Shown piece by piece: positions 22,514-50,515 of a stretch of 64,000 bases of DNA (its first letter is position 1; every line of letters begins with the position of its first letter). Below the pieces are notes generated by a model that was not told where the DNA came from, ran no database searches, and saw only the letters and a list, made by a program, of their open reading frames with translations. Both the position numbers and the translations under genes were made by a program. The stretch is from a virus: the IMG/VR virus record IMGVR_UViG_3300028654_000018, positions 1 through 64,000 of that record; one strand, given 5' to 3'.

Positions 22514-22774
22514 CTACTGATTTTTCAAAGAGCTAATCAGCATAATAAAAGCTGCTTCATCGGCGGCAGTTTTTAAGATTAATGATGAATATACTAATGA
22601 TCCGGGAAGATTTCTATATACATCACATTCGATACCAGCAGAATTTAAGTAATTAGTAATAGCATCAAAAGTTTCGTCAGGTAGCCAGTATGCACATTCC
22701 CATGTTTGATTGTATACTTTTCTAAAACTTAACGTATTCGAAAGCATATATTCACAGTCGGCGCTATTCATCAT
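22514..22774 (-). CDS. DxAxF-tail family protein, 86 aa
   Basis: Starts at tandem ATGs (22774/22771). C-terminus SLILKTAADEAAFIMLISSL: strand, turn with acidic residues, then helix starting A-x-F. The same tail closes at least 17 other small proteins in the window. Upstream of the tail is a helix (FDAITNYLNSAGI) and a strand. Overlaps its upstream neighbour by 11 nt. Function unknown. Confidence 0.7.
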   Translation of the reverse strand: MMNSADCEYMLSNTLSFRKVYNQTWECAYWLPDETFDAITNYLNSAGIECDVYRNLPGSLVYSSLILKTAADEAAFIMLISSLKNQ

Positions 22775-33925: not shown

Positions 33926-34321
33926 TTATTTTACACAATGCTGTGAATAATGTAAAATAAAAAATGCATAATCTGCATCAGAATTAAATGTAATTTTATA
34001 TGCTCGTTTGGTCTCAATATGTACGGCATCGGTTATTTTATTATACTCGATTTTTTTAGCCTTCACTTTCATACCGAGAACATTAAATCTACGACGAAGA
34101 CACCGCATAAAAGAATATGAATCTATCATAGCTAATTCATCGTTCGTTGATGCAAAAATTAATGTATTTTCTTCTTTTGTAAAATGAAAGCACTTATCAT
34201 CTTCTAATACCAACGTTCCATCATGACGAAATATTCCGTTGGTAACTTCATATAGAATATCATTATTGGGATCGTATTGCCAATTGACTCCACTTTTAGC
34301 CGTAAAAAGAATATGTTCCAT
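33926..34321 (-). CDS. DxAxF-tail family protein, 131 aa
   Basis: ATG at 34321 overlaps the RNA ligase stop by one base. The tail AYKITFNSDADYAFFILHYS is nearly the same as the one at 55238 (FTDDADYSFFKLRF). The N-terminal half is a beta-rich domain. Confidence 0.7.
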   Translation of the reverse strand: MEHILFTAKSGVNWQYDPNNDILYEVTNGIFRHDGTLVLEDDKCFHFTKEENTLIFASTNDELAMIDSYSFMRCLRRRFNVLGMKVKAKKIEYNKITDAVHIETKRAYKITFNSDADYAFFILHYSQHCVK

Positions 34322-35496
34322 CAATTAAACTCCGTTGCTTCGCCTTTTCTGAGCAAATATGCCGGAGAAACGAACTTTAGCTGTACACGACCAATCCATT
34401 TATTTTCGCGTTCTACCGCAGTTCTAATTACAATACCCTCACGAATTTGCTTTACGTCATTGATCATTGTATTGCCATCACGAAGTTCAATCATTTTTTC
34501 CATAGAGAATGGCCCATGATAAAGAACAGGAACACGTTTTAATCCAACCGCAGTGATAGCTGTTTCTAATTCAGCATCATTTAAGTAACGTCCAGTAGAC
34601 GGAGTGCCAATGAATATATCGAATACTCTGAATTCGGTTCCTTTGACGCCATACTTCAAATCTTGAACATCTCCAAAAATTTCGCCAAGAACATAAACAG
34701 ATTCTCCGCTATGCATTTTGCTAATCTCTTTCAATGCCGCCGTCATTGTAAACGTATCATTAAGTTTTGCGAGAAGCTGTTTGTGATATAGATTATTAGC
34801 ATTAGCATCATTATTTTTGAAAAATCTTCCAGCACCAGACATTCCCTTTGACGTGGCAAAAAATTCTCCATCTAAGATTTCAGAATTGTTAAGTCCAGGA
34901 ACATATGCCATACATGCCCATGTTCCGTGAAGTTTTTCTGTGACAACTACTTCTTCGCCTTCTTCAAGAACTTTGTCATACTTTTGAATATTTTGAATAT
35001 CATAATTTAATGTGATCGCAGGAGCAGAAGCTACCTCGCCTGCCATGTGAACTGGTACTGGCGGATCATATTTTGTGATGCCTAAAAAACCCGCAACATC
35101 GATCCCTTCATCAATGATAAGACGCTGACCAATAAATTCAGCAACAGTGAGGCAAGGGGCACCTGTTTCTGGATGTGTTTCTACTGGATACAAAACCCCT
35201 TGTGAAAAAATCCCGCGCAACCGAATGGCCTTAACACGATCACCTTTGCTACCAGCAAGAGTGCCTTTATTTTCTGCATCTTTCCAAAATCCCATTTTCT
35301 TCAACATCCATTCCGACAGTACTGCGGCTTCTGGAATATAGACGACCAAATCTCCGGCAGCATAACGATGTGAACCATCTTCTAACTTTGCAGAAATACA
35401 GTTATATCCACCAATTTTGATAATAGAAAGTCTATCGGCATCAGGATGATGCTCGACCGAGTCGATTTTAACAACTTGAACAGAAAAAGTACTCAT
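34321..35496 (-). CDS. RNA ligase, DRB0094/Rnl5-like
   Basis: 391 aa. An N-terminal OB-like domain (VEHHPDADRLSIIKIGGYNC) precedes the ligase core: nucleotidyl-lysine motif VVVTEKLHGTWA, LGEIFGDVQDLKYG, EGIVIRT (motif IV) and QLKFVSPAYLL (motif V). This domain order is that of the Deinococcus DRB0094 group, which seals 3'-OH/5'-phosphate nicks in RNA. With the Pnk-like kinase it could rejoin tRNAs cut by host anticodon nucleases. Confidence 0.88.
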   Translation of the reverse strand: MSTFSVQVVKIDSVEHHPDADRLSIIKIGGYNCISAKLEDGSHRYAAGDLVVYIPEAAVLSEWMLKKMGFWKDAENKGTLAGSKGDRVKAIRLRGIFSQGVLYPVETHPETGAPCLTVAEFIGQRLIIDEGIDVAGFLGITKYDPPVPVHMAGEVASAPAITLNYDIQNIQKYDKVLEEGEEVVVTEKLHGTWACMAYVPGLNNSEILDGEFFATSKGMSGAGRFFKNNDANANNLYHKQLLAKLNDTFTMTAALKEISKMHSGESVYVLGEIFGDVQDLKYGVKGTEFRVFDIFIGTPSTGRYLNDAELETAITAVGLKRVPVLYHGPFSMEKMIELRDGNTMINDVKQIREGIVIRTAVERENKWIGRVQLKFVSPAYLLRKGEATEFN

Positions 35497-35505
35497 TATT
35501 TTCTC

Positions 35506-35850
35506 CTACAAGTCCAATGCTAGTTCAGCGCAATACAACGCAAATTTATGCGTGTAGTCAGAATGACCCATAGCATTAACTTCAACTTTGCGAACATCAA
35601 GAAGCGTGACTGCTTCTTTATTTTTTGCAGCACGAACTGAATTAATCAAGTCGGTCATAAAATTTAGTTCGTGAAGATTCCATTCGAGGATAGTTACGAT
35701 TTGCTTAGGACGATATACATGCGGCACTTCAACCGTTCCTAGACGCTGTCCGCGTTCTTTTTGCACAGTTATGAGTTTACTTTCGAAATCTTTGATTGTA
35801 TTGATGAAAGTGAACCCAGAATACACGTCTGTAGAATTTTTAGTAAGCAT
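35506..35850 (-). CDS. hypothetical protein, 114 aa
   Basis: ATG at 35850 with AGAGGAT site. Helical (KDFESKLITVQKERGQRLGTVEVP). A promoter sits just upstream at 35885-35912 and a terminator beyond that. No family recognised. Confidence 0.65.
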   Translation of the reverse strand: MLTKNSTDVYSGFTFINTIKDFESKLITVQKERGQRLGTVEVPHVYRPKQIVTILEWNLHELNFMTDLINSVRAAKNKEAVTLLDVRKVEVNAMGHSDYTHKFALYCAELALDL

Positions 35851-35884
35851 TGTATATCCTCTATATAAATTAAACAATATACAT

Positions 35885-35912
35885 AGCATAACACAGAATA
35901 GCATCCGGTCAA
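35885..35912 (-). promoter_or_regulatory. sigma70-type promoter
   Basis: TTGACC (35907-35912), 16-nt spacer, TATGCT (35885-35890), 35 nt upstream of the 114-aa gene. Confidence 0.5.
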
Positions 35913-45028: not shown

Positions 45029-45931
45029 TTACATCCACTTCATTAAGAAAAAGTTCATATCATCTTCGCTTTCAAAGACCCAGACTTCATTATACATGCC
45101 CATTAGAAGAAATCTTTTTTCTAATGTTGTTCTACACCAGGCACAGACTTCTTTTAATTTTTCAAGATATGCTAAATCATATTTTGACATATTTACAGTA
45201 GAAGTAGAAAAAATATTAAGAGTTCCCCACGCAGATTTATTTACCGCATCCGCAATACCAGTGCATAGTTCTCCGGGCAATGTATACACATTATCCCATT
45301 CGCGTGTAATATGTTTTAAATTTTTGCCATATAATATATATCGAACTGCATTTTTAAGTTCGACTACATTAGTGGTTTCACTAAATTCAAATGCATCTTC
45401 CGGCGATACTTTATCGATGATATGTTCTTTAAAAAATGCATCAAAAGCAGCTAGTGATCTAAAATATAAATCATACATATTTGTTTCATATGATATTTCG
45501 CATAATTTTATCGAAGAATATTCATTCGATGATAAATTATTAAGAGCTTTTTTCGACTTTGCGTACTGTTCCATGGACATTTGTAGTGTTAGTCTAAAAG
45601 GAAACTCAGTTAATAATTTTTCTCGTTTATTTTGAATGGTTATAATCGACAATGCTTTTTTCTCATTATATGGTTTAGTAAGATAGAGTAATGAAGATGA
45701 TCGATTTTTATGATATTTTATAAATGCTCTTTTTCTAGTAAAAAGCATATTAATAAATGGATCATAATCATCATTTTCTTTATCTACAAGATGCTCTATT
45801 ACTTTATTGAATTCTTTTTCACCCTTAGACAAATTAGCATGACTAAGCGGCGTAATATTACCATATCCGCGTAGCATTGCAATCAGACAATTGCTATAAC
45901 TAGAATTTTGAGATGGCTCGAATGTTATCAT
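45029..45931 (-). CDS. large DxAxF-tail-related protein, 300 aa
   Basis: Ends NEVWVFESEDDMNFFLMKWM, the family tail with Met/Asn replacing Ala. The N-terminal 220 residues are helical and unlike other members; SLAAFDAFFKEHI may be an internal, degenerate copy. Overlaps the ABC transporter gene by 4 nt. Confidence 0.6.
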   Translation of the reverse strand: MITFEPSQNSSYSNCLIAMLRGYGNITPLSHANLSKGEKEFNKVIEHLVDKENDDYDPFINMLFTRKRAFIKYHKNRSSSLLYLTKPYNEKKALSIITIQNKREKLLTEFPFRLTLQMSMEQYAKSKKALNNLSSNEYSSIKLCEISYETNMYDLYFRSLAAFDAFFKEHIIDKVSPEDAFEFSETTNVVELKNAVRYILYGKNLKHITREWDNVYTLPGELCTGIADAVNKSAWGTLNIFSTSTVNMSKYDLAYLEKLKEVCAWCRTTLEKRFLLMGMYNEVWVFESEDDMNFFLMKWM

Positions 45932-47646
45932 TTTTCTTTTAACTTTTTATTCTTCAATATTAATTTATGTGTGTGAAATTTATCTATAGTCTTTCTATGA
46001 CCAACACTTATTATAGTAGTCTTAGGTAGTTTTGCCAAAAGTAATTTATAACTAACTTGCTCACTTTCTTCGTCCATCGAACTAGTGGATTCATCGAGAA
46101 ATAGAAAGTCGGGCTTCTGTAATATAGCGCGAATGAATGCAATTTTTTGTTTTTGGCCGCCCGATAATATTTTGTTCCAGTCAGCTTCCTTAAGAATATC
46201 ATCTCGGAGATCATGTAAACCAATTTCATACATCAACTGTTGTATTTCTGCCCGATCAAAAAGTATTTGCAAAACTGTTTTTCCTTTAGTATCTGGAGAA
46301 TTTCCCGGATAACATATAACATCCAGTAATGTTCCCAATGGCATATAGGAATTCTGACTAATGAACATTTGCGTCTTATTTGTTGGCATATTGATTGTTC
46401 CCAACGCATATGGCCAAATATTCGCAATACATCTTAATAGTGTACTTTTGCCTGTGCCATTTGCGCCAGAGATAACATATCTTCCTGTAGTTTTGAAGTT
46501 AAACGTAGCATTATCAAGTAATACGCCATTGTTAGGCAATGAAATTGTGAAGTTCTTGATACCAAATATTTTTTTATTAATGAATTTCACTTTTTTATTA
46601 TGATCTAATTCTTGCCAATCATTGACTGCCGTTTCAAAACCATTTAAACGATTTATCACGGCGCGATAATTTGCTAAATTTGTAAAGCTATCGACAAACC
46701 ATGCCAAAGAACTTTGAACACTGTCGAATGCACTTGCTGTTTGCATTAATCCACCAAGTTTAATAGCTCCAGAGAAAAACCTCGGCGCACTTACGAGATA
46801 GGGAAATATCACGGCTATTTGTGAAAAATAACTCGACCACCAATTCAAATGCTTTTGTTTTGTATTAATTTTGTTGAAGTTATCGAAGACAAAAGAAAAT
46901 CGTTTCATAAATCCTTTCTTCTCAAATTTTTCTCCCTTATACAGAACAATGCTTTCACTATTCTCTCTTGTTCGCATCAAACTATAACGAAAGTTGGCTT
47001 CGAATTGCTCTTGAATGAAACTAAGACCAGGAAGTTTTTTACCGATCTTTCTCGTTACGAACGTTCCAAATACTGAATAAACTAATACTCCCCACACAAG
47101 ATAATGTCCGATGAATATTTCATGCCCCATCAAAGTGAAAGTTATGCTGTCACTTAATCCCCACAATATAAAAATGAAGCTAAAGAACGTTACAACAGAA
47201 CTTAATAGTCCGAGACTTAACGACAAGCTTAAAACAACGAATGAGTTGATATCTTCACTTATACGTTGGTCTACGTTATCGGCACTTGATGAAAGAAATT
47301 GGGAACCGTAAAATGTTTTTGTTTTAAGCCACGTTTCTAGATTTTTCTCTGTGAGCCAATTTCTCCACGTAATCTGTAATTTTTGAAAAAAGTAAGATTT
47401 ATACCCGTATATACCAACAAATATTAATGCTAGTATCATAAATTTCTTAATATAGTACAAGAAAGCTGGTTGGTCTAAATTTTGTAAACTATCATAAAAG
47501 CCATTGCGCCAGCTATTAAACTGCACATTTAAATATACGAGTGTCATTTCCATTGCAATGATCGAAACTAATAAAAATATAGGTTTCCATCTATTTGGAT
47601 TCGTAACAAAAAAAGCTTTCCAGTATTTTACGATTGATTTAAACAT
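45928..47646 (-). CDS. SbmA/BacA-YddA family ABC transporter, full length
   Basis: 572 aa half-transporter with fused ATPase. N-terminal membrane domain with about six spans and the family signature NVQFNSWRNGFYDSLQNLD...FYYIKKF-like and ITWRNWLTEKNLETWL; C-terminal ATPase with GANGTGKSTLL (Walker A), LSGGQKQKIAF (signature), PDFLFLDESTSSMDEE (Walker B) and SVGH (H-loop). Members in bacteria handle peptides, cobalamin or fatty acids; rhizobial BacA takes up host peptides. All catalytic motifs are intact. A complete ABC transporter in a phage is exceptional. Confidence 0.93.
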   Translation of the reverse strand: MFKSIVKYWKAFFVTNPNRWKPIFLLVSIIAMEMTLVYLNVQFNSWRNGFYDSLQNLDQPAFLYYIKKFMILALIFVGIYGYKSYFFQKLQITWRNWLTEKNLETWLKTKTFYGSQFLSSSADNVDQRISEDINSFVVLSLSLSLGLLSSVVTFFSFIFILWGLSDSITFTLMGHEIFIGHYLVWGVLVYSVFGTFVTRKIGKKLPGLSFIQEQFEANFRYSLMRTRENSESIVLYKGEKFEKKGFMKRFSFVFDNFNKINTKQKHLNWWSSYFSQIAVIFPYLVSAPRFFSGAIKLGGLMQTASAFDSVQSSLAWFVDSFTNLANYRAVINRLNGFETAVNDWQELDHNKKVKFINKKIFGIKNFTISLPNNGVLLDNATFNFKTTGRYVISGANGTGKSTLLRCIANIWPYALGTINMPTNKTQMFISQNSYMPLGTLLDVICYPGNSPDTKGKTVLQILFDRAEIQQLMYEIGLHDLRDDILKEADWNKILSGGQKQKIAFIRAILQKPDFLFLDESTSSMDEESEQVSYKLLLAKLPKTTIISVGHRKTIDKFHTHKLILKNKKLKEK

Positions 47647-47651
47647 AATTT

Positions 47652-48092
47652 TTATTTTTCATCTGAGGGGGAATATGACTGTGTATATGATATATTATTT
47701 TTAATCTCAGAAGCAAGAGATATTTTTTCTATAAGTTTCTTAAAACACTTCTTTCTATTGATTTGCCAGTTCTTACTATTTCTTGGCATATCTAAATGCC
47801 ACATATATTCAATCTTCGCTGATATCACTGCACTATCAGTCTCATTATCATTCGTAAAAATCATATCAATTGCATTGATTGCCTTTATAAAGTCCACAGT
47901 GACTGTATCGAAATTATTTTCTAACAAAATTCTTAGTATTTTTTTACCTTCATCATTGTGGCGTTTTATTTTGGAAAAATAATCTTTTAACGCATCGTAC
48001 AGCAACTTAATTAAAAACCCAGATAAGAGCGTTATCGTGTGTGCCGTGGGCTTATGATTTTCTAAAATATCAGAAATAAAATCTATATTCAT
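47652..48092 (-). CDS. hypothetical protein with N-terminal membrane segment, 146 aa
   Basis: Hydrophobic segment TITLLSGFLIKLLYDAL followed by KIKRHNDEGKKILRILLEN and EYMWHLDMPRN...WQINRKKCFKKLIEKI. Resembles bacterial DUF6680-type proteins (helix, AWxxYxxHL-like, C-terminal helix), of unknown role. 4-nt overlap with the agmatinase gene. Confidence 0.55.
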   Translation of the reverse strand: MNIDFISDILENHKPTAHTITLLSGFLIKLLYDALKDYFSKIKRHNDEGKKILRILLENNFDTVTVDFIKAINAIDMIFTNDNETDSAVISAKIEYMWHLDMPRNSKNWQINRKKCFKKLIEKISLASEIKNNISYTQSYSPSDEK

Positions 48093-48982
48093 TTAACATC
48101 CATCAGTGAGATCATATTCCACATTATAGTAGCGCCAGCCAATGCAGTAATCTGCGATACATCGTATGCCGGACATACTTCGACAAGATCAGCGCCGATC
48201 AATTTCTTATTTTTAGAATGAAGTTGTTTCATAATTTCCATAATCTGCCATGTGAACAAACCGCCGACTTCTGGCGTTCCTGTTCCTGGCGCTTGTGATG
48301 CATCGAGACAGTCAATATCAAATGTCATATACGTTGGCAAACCATCCGTAGATTGAATAATATCGTCGGCCAGATCATCCAAATTCATTTTATGAACCGT
48401 TGATGCGTTATATTGAATGATTCCTCTATCTATTAGCCAGTCATTGTTGCTTTTTGGAGAAGATGAACGAATTCCAATTTGAACTATGCGTTCTGGATCT
48501 ACTAATCCATCTTCAATTGCCAATCTTAAAAAATTTCCGTGATTGGGCGTTTTACCTTCGTCCCAAGCATCAATGTGCGCATCGAAATGAACGAGCGACA
48601 TTTTCCCATATTTTTTATAATGCGCTTTAAGAATCGGATAGGTAATTGTGTGGTCGCCACCCATAGAAATAAGTTTTGTTTTATCGACTAGCTTTGTAAA
48701 ATCTGATTCCAGCATTGCTATTGGTACTACTCGGTCGATTTCAACGTCTCCGATGTCTCCTACATTTTTTAAAATGTCGTCATATGACATATCTGTATAT
48801 GGATTGCGGCCGTCGCATAGCATTGCGCTTGCATCACGAATAGCAGTTGGTCCCAATCTCGCGCCGGGTCTATTTGACGTTCCGAGATCATAACAAACTC
48901 CGACGGTTGATATAGGTTTATGACCGACAGGACCTACTGAAGTTTTCATAAAAGAACGTATGCCAGTGTAAGTATTCGTCAT
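48089..48982 (-). CDS. agmatinase/arginase-family ureohydrolase
   Basis: 297 aa. GGDHTIT, HFDAHIDAWDE and TFDIDCLDASQAPGTGTPE supply the His and Asp ligands for two Mn ions; RPGARLGPTAIR matches the family start. The PGTGTPE form is usual in agmatinases, which release urea from agmatine to give putrescine. Putrescine could neutralise packaged DNA or feed base modification. Guanidino substrate not certain. Confidence 0.9.
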   Translation of the reverse strand: MTNTYTGIRSFMKTSVGPVGHKPISTVGVCYDLGTSNRPGARLGPTAIRDASAMLCDGRNPYTDMSYDDILKNVGDIGDVEIDRVVPIAMLESDFTKLVDKTKLISMGGDHTITYPILKAHYKKYGKMSLVHFDAHIDAWDEGKTPNHGNFLRLAIEDGLVDPERIVQIGIRSSSPKSNNDWLIDRGIIQYNASTVHKMNLDDLADDIIQSTDGLPTYMTFDIDCLDASQAPGTGTPEVGGLFTWQIMEIMKQLHSKNKKLIGADLVEVCPAYDVSQITALAGATIMWNMISLMDVK

Positions 48983-49170: not shown

Positions 49171-49220
49171 CCGTCTAGAATACTATGAAATGCTTGATAT
49201 GTCAAAGATTAAATAATATC

Positions 49221-49556
49221 ATGAAGTTAAAAGAACTCCTTAATGAAGCGATGTCTAAAGATCAAGCCGTGGCTACTTTTGCTCGATTTGGCGTGCGCGA
49301 TGCCCTGAAATATGCCGCGCCACAATTGAAAACGTTATATCTTGCATTAGCAAAGAAAAACCATCCTGATGCGGGTGGGTCGGTAGAGCGCATGACTGAA
49401 ATCAATGCCGCATACGATGTTTTGAAGAAAGTTAAAGCTGGCTTGGAAGCGTTTGGGTTTAATCGTGACGATTTTCCGTATACAGGAACTAAGCATACAG
49501 ACGCCCTAAATCAGTTTTGGGCGGCTGCTGAACGCGCACGAAACAATAAGAAATAA
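49221..49556 (+). CDS. J-domain protein with MKLKELLNEA leader
   Basis: 111 aa from ATG at 49221. Leader MKLKELLNEAMSKD, then a J-domain: LKTLYLALAKKNHPDAGGS with the HPD that stimulates Hsp70, and MTEINAAYDVLKK. There is no zinc or substrate domain. The leader matches the other putative packaged proteins, so this may be an injected co-chaperone that redirects host DnaK. Confidence 0.8.
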   Translation: MKLKELLNEAMSKDQAVATFARFGVRDALKYAAPQLKTLYLALAKKNHPDAGGSVERMTEINAAYDVLKKVKAGLEAFGFNRDDFPYTGTKHTDALNQFWAAAERARNNKK

Positions 49557-49602: not shown

Positions 49603-49677
49603 GTTCCTGTAGCTTAACGGTTAAAGCAGTAATCTCTAAAATTATCAATGTCGATTCGATTTCGACCAGGAACACCA
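49603..49677 (+). tRNA. amber-suppressor-type tRNA, anticodon CTA
   Basis: Acceptor GTTCCTG/CAGGAAC with A73 and encoded CCA; D-arm GCTT-AACGGTTA-AAGC; anticodon arm GTAAT-CTCTAAA-ATTAT; T-arm GTCGA-TTCGATT-TCGAC. Anticodon at 49636-49638 is CTA, reading UAG. Canonical G18G19 and TTC. Only plus-strand tRNA in the window. Identity of the charged amino acid unknown. Confidence 0.88.
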
Positions 49678-49700
49678 ACAACTAACAAAAAGGATATACT

Positions 49701-49790
49701 ATGACTATGTAGGTTTATAATTCTCGCGCTTCTCCTTGTAAGGTAATTAAACGATTAATTACACATCTTACAATCTCAAAGGAGAACAAC
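49701..49790 (+). promoter_or_regulatory. leader with in-frame UAG and hairpin before the 130-aa gene
   Basis: AAAGGA precedes ATG-ACT-ATG-TAG at 49701; the frame then stays open for 26 codons into the ATG at 49791. A hairpin (GTAATTAA, ACGA, TTAATTAC, flanked by GTAAG/CTTAC; 49737-49772) stands before the second AAAGGAGA site. Reading-through of the UAG by the adjacent tRNA would make an N-terminally extended protein. Confidence 0.5.
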
Positions 49791-50183
49791 ATGACTAACA
49801 CGACACATACACCAAAAACTAATTTTTTCAATACCAAAGAAGACTATATTAAATTTATTACTCACTGGAAAGCTTTAGCTAACAGCAAAAAAGCTACGTG
49901 CGAAGAACATATACTTTACACAATTCTAAAAGGTAATGATTTTAATAAAGCATTTACTCCCGTTACAAATAAAACTAAAATAATACATAATTTAAGCGGA
50001 AATAAATATGGTAACATTGCTACTGCATATCATAGAGTTAGCTATGCACTTACAACTATCCAAGGACCGCTGCATCTAATTATTAAGTCAAGTTGGTATA
50101 CGACACTAAATGATGATACTAAGGAAAAATTAAAATTTTTCTTCACTAATACAACATTTAAGAAAATAATCGGAGAAGAATAA
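49791..50183 (+). CDS. hypothetical protein, 130 aa
   Basis: Strong AAAGGAG site 6 nt before ATG. Lys/Thr-rich soluble protein with no recognised motif. An in-frame upstream extension blocked by one UAG is possible (see leader). Shares one base with the Pth2-like gene (TAATG). Confidence 0.75.
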   Translation: MTNTTHTPKTNFFNTKEDYIKFITHWKALANSKKATCEEHILYTILKGNDFNKAFTPVTNKTKIIHNLSGNKYGNIATAYHRVSYALTTIQGPLHLIIKSSWYTTLNDDTKEKLKFFFTNTTFKKIIGEE

Positions 50184-50515
50184 TGAAAACAGAAACACAA
50201 TATATCTATGTCTTTGTTCGCAAAGATATGCTTGTTGAGTTTCAGATTGTTCAAGCTTGTCACGCATCGTGCGTGGCAGGCGAACAGTTTGGTGGTAGTA
50301 ATTCACATATGGTATTGCTAGGACTCTCTGGGCCAGATGAACTTGAATCTCTTACAGCATGGTTACAAGTTTATAAAATTCCATTTGTTACATTTTTTGA
50401 ATCAGATGATAATATGGGTAATTCTGCCGTAGCTACTTCTCCTATATCTGGAGAATCACGTAAAAATATTAAAAAAATAATCGATGATATGAAACTCGTT
50501 CTATGGAAATTATAA
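50183..50515 (+). CDS. peptidyl-tRNA hydrolase 2-like protein
   Basis: 110 aa. YIYVFVRKDMLVEFQIVQACHAS, HMVLLGL...DELESLTAWLQVYKIPFVTFFE and NSAVATSPIS follow the Pth2 order (RxDL, Q...AHA, ELxxL, GIP, TAxAxxP). Pth2 frees tRNA from peptidyl-tRNA. Next to a suppressor-type tRNA and the tRNA clusters it may recycle phage tRNAs. Related small phage proteins are often annotated simply as conserved. Confidence 0.72.
   Translation: MKTETQYIYVFVRKDMLVEFQIVQACHASCVAGEQFGGSNSHMVLLGLSGPDELESLTAWLQVYKIPFVTFFESDDNMGNSAVATSPISGESRKNIKKIIDDMKLVLWKL

What the first reader, a model, noticed from the sequence alone, without database searches (positions are those of the whole stretch)
49603..49793. Amber-reading tRNA beside a gene with a single in-frame UAG leader
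The plus-strand tRNA has anticodon CTA. Eight codons' distance downstream of its 3' end, an ATG with an AAAGGA site opens a frame ATG-ACT-ATG-TAG that continues without another stop for 26 codons into the ATG of the 130-aa gene. Suppression would give an extended isoform; without it a tripeptide is made. TAG is used as a stop elsewhere (genes at 22764 and 39595), so this is not wholesale recoding.
Basis: partly seen in the sequence, partly recalled or inferred. Interest (0 to 1): 0.85.

Follow-up and report, generated by a model that had tools for sequence, protein, structure and literature searches.

The report
Amber-gated gene switch in phages
A large phage carries a transfer RNA that reads a stop signal, placed directly before an operon whose leader contains exactly that stop; distantly related phages keep the same arrangement, so the stop looks like a gate that opens only when the phage's own tRNA is active.

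Summary
In detail: tRNA-CUA (49603-49677), then a Shine-Dalgarno site and AUG-ACU-AUG-UAG, then 26 open codons into the AUG of a 130-aa gene. It is not chance (P about 0.0002 in shuffles) and it has relatives. Homologues of the 130-aa gene (phrog_22448) in Mimasvirus, Eneladusvirus and a 177-kb phage also have an AUG-(1-2 codons)-UAG mini-ORF upstream. In those folded, a hairpin then hides the gene's Shine-Dalgarno site, with covariation in ten leaders; the window has such a hairpin too. In Eneladusvirus and the 177-kb phage the read-through frame ends at the gene's start instead of entering it. So an "extended isoform" is not what is conserved; a UAG-gated translational switch is.

The window's next gene (overlapping start, UAAUG) is PTH2-like. 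Its homologues in about 30 phages of some 14 lineages carry UAG at codon 3, 4 or 6 and must be read through; all but one of those genomes have a tRNA-CUA, and three without the in-frame UAG have none detected. A partner HD-motif gene gained UAGs at several sites. A 2018 study of one such phage (XacN1) sought targets and found none.

Comparative support is strong; charging, expression and purpose are untested.

The parts
49603..49677 (+). tRNA with anticodon CUA (amber-reading); ARAGORN's 'Pyl' label rests on the anticodon only
   Evidence: cloverleaf partly recovered by folding; CCA encoded, G1-C72, A73 (sequence)
49690..49694 (+). Shine-Dalgarno site AAGGA of the mini-ORF
   Evidence: sequence; mostly unpaired in the predicted leader fold
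49701..49712 (+). mini-ORF AUG-ACU-AUG-UAG (gate codon UAG at 49710-49712)
   Evidence: counterparts upstream of homologous genes in other phages
49713..49790 (+). 26-codon open read-through stretch, in frame with the 130-aa gene
   Evidence: same TAG-to-ATG length in GAP32, CBB, Kaldavass and XbC2
49730..49786 (+). RNA hairpin pairing UUCUCCUU with AAGGAGAA, hiding the SD of the 130-aa gene
   Evidence: (z -5.1); analogous hairpin with covariation in ten relatives
49778..49784 (+). Shine-Dalgarno site AAAGGAG of the 130-aa gene, predicted paired
   Evidence: unpaired probability 0.00-0.02 for GGAG
49791..50183 (+). 130-aa gene, phrog_22448 family, function unknown
   Evidence: E 1e-6; relatives in Mimasvirus and 47% identity over about 55 aa in G014
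50181..50185 (+). UAAUG overlap of the 130-aa stop and the PTH2-like start (translational coupling inferred)
   Evidence: same overlap and gene order in the L106 phage
50183..50515 (+). 110-aa PTH2-like protein gene; no UAG of its own
   Evidence: homologues match Pfam PTH2

Best explanation
The leader is an amber-gated translational switch. Ribosomes load at the SD before 49701, make Met-Thr-Met and stop at UAG, short of the hairpin at 49730; the hairpin keeps the SD of the 130-aa gene closed, so that gene and the PTH2-like gene coupled to it by UAAUG stay off. Once the phage's own tRNA-CUA is transcribed and charged, it reads the UAG; ribosomes run on, unwind the hairpin and either continue in frame into the 130-aa protein or free its SD for new starts, and the PTH2-like gene follows. 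The phage's suppressor tRNA thus acts as a trans-acting regulator of a small set of its own genes. In related phages the same PTH2-like gene carries UAG at codon 3, 4 or 6, its HD-motif partner often carries another, and the phrog_22448 gene has the same kind of leader plus hairpin. Purpose (inferred only): either a timing lock or a homeostat in which suppressor activity induces a tRNA-directed PTH2/HD pair that limits it, as RF2 frameshifting does for release factor. Shown: anatomy, conservation, coding signature across UAG, covariation, co-occurrence with tRNA-CUA. Inferred: charging, read-through, hairpin opening, coupling, purpose.
For: (1) UAG mini-ORF upstream of the homologous gene in GAP32, CBB, Kaldavass, XbC2, Eneladusvirus and five IMG/VR genomes, UAG invariant in 10 of 10, and twice in tandem in the 177-kb phage. 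The stop is always UAG, although UAG is only 3-4% of stops in GAP32, SNU19 and XbC2. (2) SD-hiding hairpin after the UAG: window z -5.1; ten leaders, 6 pairs changed on both sides, 87.6% of cells paired, 0 of 500 shuffles, slid controls 31-41%. (3) PTH2-like gene with UAG at codon 3, 4 or 6 in about 30 phages, with a strong coding signature right after it (substitutions at codon positions 9/1/63 in SNU19) and, in Mimasvirus and Eneladusvirus, no other start for 20 or more codons. (4) HD-motif gene with UAGs at three different sites in different lineages. (5) tRNA-CUA found in all UAG+ genomes examined but one, and in none of RaK2, Hallingskeid and the L093 contig, which lack the in-frame UAG. 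(6) Same order 130-aa/UAAUG/PTH2-like in the L106 phage. (7) Window leader: shuffle P 0.0002.
Against: No expression, charging or peptide data. The window has no close relative in the collections searched, so its own leader rests on one sequence. Its read-through peptide is not recognisably like the others, and TAG-anchored nucleotide identity to GAP32 is modest (38/84, P about 0.009). The window's PTH2-like gene has no UAG. One UAG+ genome (L089/G002) shows no tRNA-CUA. Some tRNA-CUA phages (e.g. PhT2) gave no PTH2-like hit, so suppressors have other uses. UAG is a common stop in the window's genome, so suppression would cost it something. The mini-ORF SD in the 177-kb phage is weak.
Confidence: 0.7

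Rival explanations
1. One reading: the UAG is suppressed to give an N-terminally extended isoform of the 130-aa protein beside the short form; the extension itself matters.
For: In the window and in GAP32, CBB, Kaldavass and XbC2 the frame is open and in phase; a short STGPP stretch is shared in Mimasvirus and Eneladusvirus.
Against: In SNU19, G005 and the 177-kb phage the read-through frame is out of phase and ends at the gene start; substitutions in the extension fit the hairpin (covariation); the window's extension does not resemble the others.
Confidence: 0.12
2. Plain SD-hiding hairpin for early/late timing, as described for T4 lysozyme gene e, with a late promoter inside; the UAG mini-ORF is incidental.
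For: A hairpin covering the SD is present and conserved; T4-type phages use such hairpins (own knowledge).
Against: Does not explain the invariant UAG mini-ORF, the UAGs in the PTH2-like and HD genes, or the link to tRNA-CUA. No late-promoter-like motif was obvious by eye in the Mimasvirus leaders; this was not tested formally.
Confidence: 0.1
3. General recoding (code 15): TAG is a sense codon throughout these phages and these genes are simply examples.
For: Phages with code 15 and tRNA-CUA exist (PMC9523058, PMC13037316); LR756501 has a further in-frame TAG and may be such a case.
Against: TAG ends 14 of 90 window ORFs and 15 of 427 GAP32 ORFs; the genome-wide scan of GAP32, XbC2 and SNU19 found robust coding across TAG only in the PTH2-like, HD and phrog_22448 loci plus one doubtful C-terminal case.
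Confidence: 0.05
4. Neutral dependence: once a suppressor exists, UAGs drift into tolerant genes and then lock the tRNA in place.
For: Explains co-occurrence without a purpose; UAG sites in the HD gene differ between lineages.
Against: The same two or three genes out of several hundred are hit in some 14 lineages, nearly always within the first codons, with an added SD hairpin in one case.
Confidence: 0.1

Closest known systems
Engineered suppressor-tRNA feed-forward 'leak dampener' in E. coli (PMC7969014)
   Same: Uses a suppressor tRNA in a coherent feed-forward loop so that a gene is expressed only when the tRNA is made too.
   Different: Built by engineers; no natural UAG leader with SD hairpin, no phage module. 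Known here from the abstract only.
Stop-codon recoding in phages (code 15; PMC9523058, PMC13037316)
   Same: Phage-encoded tRNA-CUA reads UAG in phage genes.
   Different: There UAG is sense in many genes; here it remains a stop and is read in only two or three genes, mostly at the 5' end or in a leader.
XacN1 jumbo phage suppressor tRNAs (PMC5852040)
   Same: Two tRNA-CUA genes in a jumbo phage; the authors looked for read-through targets.
   Different: They found no target; here the annotated HD-PTH2 gene of XacN1 is seen to be preceded in frame by AUG-AAA-UAG.
Leader-ORF attenuators with SD-hiding hairpins (erm-type) and T4 gene e hairpin (own knowledge)
   Same: A short leader ORF and/or a hairpin that hides the SD of the next gene.
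   Different: The signal is reading of a stop codon by a phage tRNA, not drug-stalled ribosomes or a late promoter.
RF2 (prfB) programmed frameshift autoregulation (own knowledge)
   Same: An early in-frame stop codon senses the balance of termination and read-through and controls its own gene.
   Different: Sensor is a suppressor tRNA, not a release factor; the controlled protein is PTH2-like.

Membership tests
Amber suppressor tRNA | tRNA gene with CUA anticodon and cloverleaf | tested here: met
Amber suppressor tRNA | Aminoacylated and decodes UAG in vivo | not testable with these tools
   Isotype left open: best pool match Arg tRNAs, weak
Pyrrolysine system | PylS synthetase and pyrrolysine-type tRNA | not tested
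   ARAGORN label follows the anticodon only; no PylS search was run on the window
Phage genetic code 15 | TAG no longer used as a stop, many in-frame TAGs | tested here: not met
   14 of 90 window ORFs end in TAG; coding density 0.909 (code 11) against 0.927 (TAG=Q) does not decide
phrog_22448 family (130-aa gene) | Profile match | tested here: met
   E 1e-6 over residues 15-88
PTH2 peptidyl-tRNA hydrolase | Pfam PF01981 match | tested here: inconclusive
   Relatives match (LR756511 3.1e-6, RaK2 5e-6, XacN1 1.8e-5); window protein itself gives no Pfam hit but aligns to them
PTH2 peptidyl-tRNA hydrolase | Lysine before the xxQxxHA motif, as in solved PTH2 enzymes | tested here: not met
   Family has EQIVVQ or EFQIVQ instead; hydrolase activity doubtful; CBB and RaK2 papers name a PTH2 under other gene numbers (PMC5259590, PMC3622015)
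SD-hiding leader hairpin | Stable, conserved hairpin covering the SD of the next gene | tested here: met

The most novel reading that the evidence does not exclude
Phage suppressor tRNAs are dedicated trans-acting gene regulators: across the T4 superfamily and other large phages a standard-code genome keeps UAG gates in one small tRNA-related regulon (PTH2-like, HD-motif, phrog_22448), forming a feedback circuit in which suppressor activity controls proteins that in turn act on tRNA.
Probability: 0.5. Interest if true: 0.93.

Novelty: new variant of a known kind. Interest (0 to 1): 0.86.

Why it matters
Many large phages carry CUA tRNAs although they use the standard code, and their targets have been an open question (PMC5852040 tried and found none). 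This names targets, explains why the genes are mis-annotated in public records, and gives sequences on which natural tRNA-gated expression can be tested directly.

Tried and rejected
Close relatives of the window's 130-aa and PTH2-like proteins in viral contigs: none; DNA pattern for the tRNA: none; DNA similarity to phages near the site: little beyond a tRNA in PhT2. First genome-wide scans for coding across TAG were swamped by antisense shadow frames and replaced by a filtered version. Extra relatives of the 130-aa gene by profile and pattern: only the same 177-kb phage. Ribosome bypassing of the T4 gene 60 type: considered; matching take-off and landing codons occur in the window (AUG) but not in relatives with CUA before UAG. 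An ochre counterpart in LR745208 (UUA tRNA beside a PTH2-like gene): rejected, a GTG start follows the in-frame stop and no start precedes it closely in frame (read by hand). Mycobacteriophage IkeLoa AUG-UAG-GUG: left out as ambiguous (GUG start with good SD). Amino-acid identity of the tRNAs: nearest isotypes differ between phages, unresolved. MAFFT did not align the window leader on its UAG, so no structure alignment with the window was claimed. Structure prediction of the 130-aa protein was not attempted (too few sequences).

Full report
What is there. The window is part of a 68.5-kb IMG/VR virus record of a T4-type myovirus: terminase nearest to Agrobacterium phage Atu_ph07 and other jumbo phages, T4-like DNA polymerase and RNA ligase. 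The tRNA-CUA, its 24-nt spacing to the AUG, the SD, AUG-ACU-AUG-UAG and the 26 open codons to AUG 49791 are as described. TAG is a normal stop here. In shuffles of the spacer such a leader arises with frequency 0.0002, and only this one of 173 ORFs in the window has it.

After the UAG a hairpin (49730-49786) pairs UUCUCCUU with AAGGAGAA, the SD of the 130-aa gene (-16.1 kcal/mol, z -5.1); the core of that SD is predicted almost fully paired. The 130-aa stop overlaps the next start (UAAUG, 50181-50185), and the next gene is PTH2-like.

The leader has relatives. The 130-aa protein belongs to phrog_22448. Its homologues lie downstream of a tRNA in Mimasvirus and Eneladusvirus, and between tRNA and gene each has AUG-CUA-UAG or AUG-AUG-CUA-UAG with an SD. 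In GAP32, CBB, Kaldavass and XbC2 the UAG lies at exactly the same distance from the gene's AUG as in the window (26 codons between them), in frame and open. Five further genomes give ten leaders in all with UAG invariant. RNAalifold and pair counting support a hairpin covering the gene's SD: 6 pairs changed on both sides, 87.6% of cells paired, no shuffle of 500 as high, slid controls 31-41%. In SNU19 and G005 the read-through frame is out of phase and ends on the start codon (AUGUUAA). A 177-kb phage (L106/L140/G014) whose homologue is 47% identical to the window's over about 55 residues has two tandem AUG-UUG-UAG, a read-through frame (with a third UAG) that ends one base before the AUG, a hairpin over the SD, and the same gene order with UAAUG into a PTH2-like gene. 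What is conserved is UAG plus hidden SD, not the fusion.

The PTH2-like gene. In Mimasvirus and Eneladusvirus it begins AUG-(GCU/GCA/ACG)-(CAC/CAA)-UAG and only then continues as the homologue of the window's 110-aa protein. After the UAG, substitutions fall at third positions (SNU19: 9/1/63), and in these phages no other start lies within the next 19 codons. A profile scan of viral contigs gave 23 loci; 22 have UAG at codon 3, 4 or 6 (one after a GUG start, L096), and one (L093) has the UAG in another frame. Named phages add LR756511, ME3 (also in the scan as L105), Arash, XacN1, RAS14, LR756500 and LR756501. Deposited annotations start late or break these genes. The family matches Pfam PTH2 in several members but lacks the motif lysine seen in solved PTH2 enzymes; the CBB and RaK2 papers describe a PTH2 under other gene numbers (PMC5259590, PMC3622015), so this one is probably a second, specialised PTH2-fold protein (inference).

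The partner gene. A gene with an HD-motif (HDCGKP and variants) follows in most, or is fused in XacN1 and RAS14. It has its own UAG at LDTG-X-GDP (Mimasvirus, Eneladusvirus), after DLPP (L095, L096, L100-L102) or at codon 4 (L094), and none in Arash, ME3 and others. Different sites in different lineages point to repeated gain of the stop itself.

Link to the tRNA. All five Mimasvirus/Eneladusvirus genomes examined have tRNA-CUA, as do ME3 and Arash, the contigs except L089 and L093 (L092), XacN1, LR756511, LR756500 and LR756501 and RAS14. RaK2, Hallingskeid and the L093 contig, without in-frame UAG, have none among the tRNAs ARAGORN could type; a few weak Rfam hits in RaK2 and Hallingskeid stayed untyped. 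L089 is the one UAG+ genome with no CUA tRNA found. The contig scan used UAG+ sequences as query, so the proportion of UAG+ genes is biased, but the tRNA was not part of the search. Conversely PhT2 has a tRNA-CUA and no PTH2-like hit, so suppressors also occur without this module.

Scope. A scan of GAP32, XbC2 and SNU19 found robust coding on both sides of a shared TAG, or right after an early one, only at the PTH2-like, HD and phrog_22448 loci, plus a doubtful C-terminal case (the remaining rows there are weak, small or antisense by my reading). TAG ends 3-4% of ORFs there, so this is not code 15.

How it most likely works. Without charged tRNA-CUA, ribosomes stop at UAG before reaching the hairpin and the operon stays closed. 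With it they pass, unwind the hairpin and turn on the 130-aa gene and, by coupling, the PTH2-like gene. In the window the PTH2-like gene has no UAG of its own; gating through the operon leader would replace it (inference). Purpose is open: timing, or feedback on suppressor level by tRNA-acting proteins.

Known work. The XacN1 authors read through 18 ambers and found no targets (PMC5852040). Papers on other jumbo phages list suppressor tRNAs without targets or describe recoding. An engineered suppressor-tRNA feed-forward loop uses the same logic (PMC7969014, abstract). I found no report of these UAGs in the library held; subscription journals are mostly missing from it.

Noticed in passing
L093:5963-6060: In the one contig without tRNA-CUA, the PTH2-like frame follows AUG...CAG-UAG with a +1 offset, as if UAG triggered frameshifting (RF2-like) instead of suppression; could also be a sequence error.
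   Followed up: partly
XbC2 (OP292654.1) 106792: A UAG near a gene's 3' end followed by YSYYCRKSKATLC, strongly conserved in GAP32 and SNU19; C-terminal read-through, or a promoter or other DNA signal.
   Followed up: no
window 35506-35904 and 34321-35496 (-): A TAG-terminated 132-aa ORF lies three codons before the RNA ligase start, apparently in the same frame (from coordinates); read-through would fuse them. Chance in one of three.
   Followed up: no
OQ632216.1 (Arash) 49176-49247: Deposited as tRNA-Phe, but ARAGORN reads anticodon CTA.
   Followed up: yes
L114:8202-8622 (XacN1): ARAGORN reports a permuted tmRNA (tag ANANTFDYALAA) among the phage tRNAs.
   Followed up: no
L130:17429-17503 (RAS14), L103:11135, L107:7047, L126:5399: tRNAs with anticodon UUA (ochre-reading) in some of these phages.
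   Followed up: no
L129 (mycobacteriophage IkeLoa) 1460-1475: AUG-UAG-GUG directly at the start of a PTH2 gene with a tRNA-CUA 250 nt downstream; a GUG start is equally likely.
   Followed up: partly
window 45928-47646 and 48089-48982: SbmA/BacA-type ABC transporter and arginase-family genes in the phage contig.
   Followed up: no
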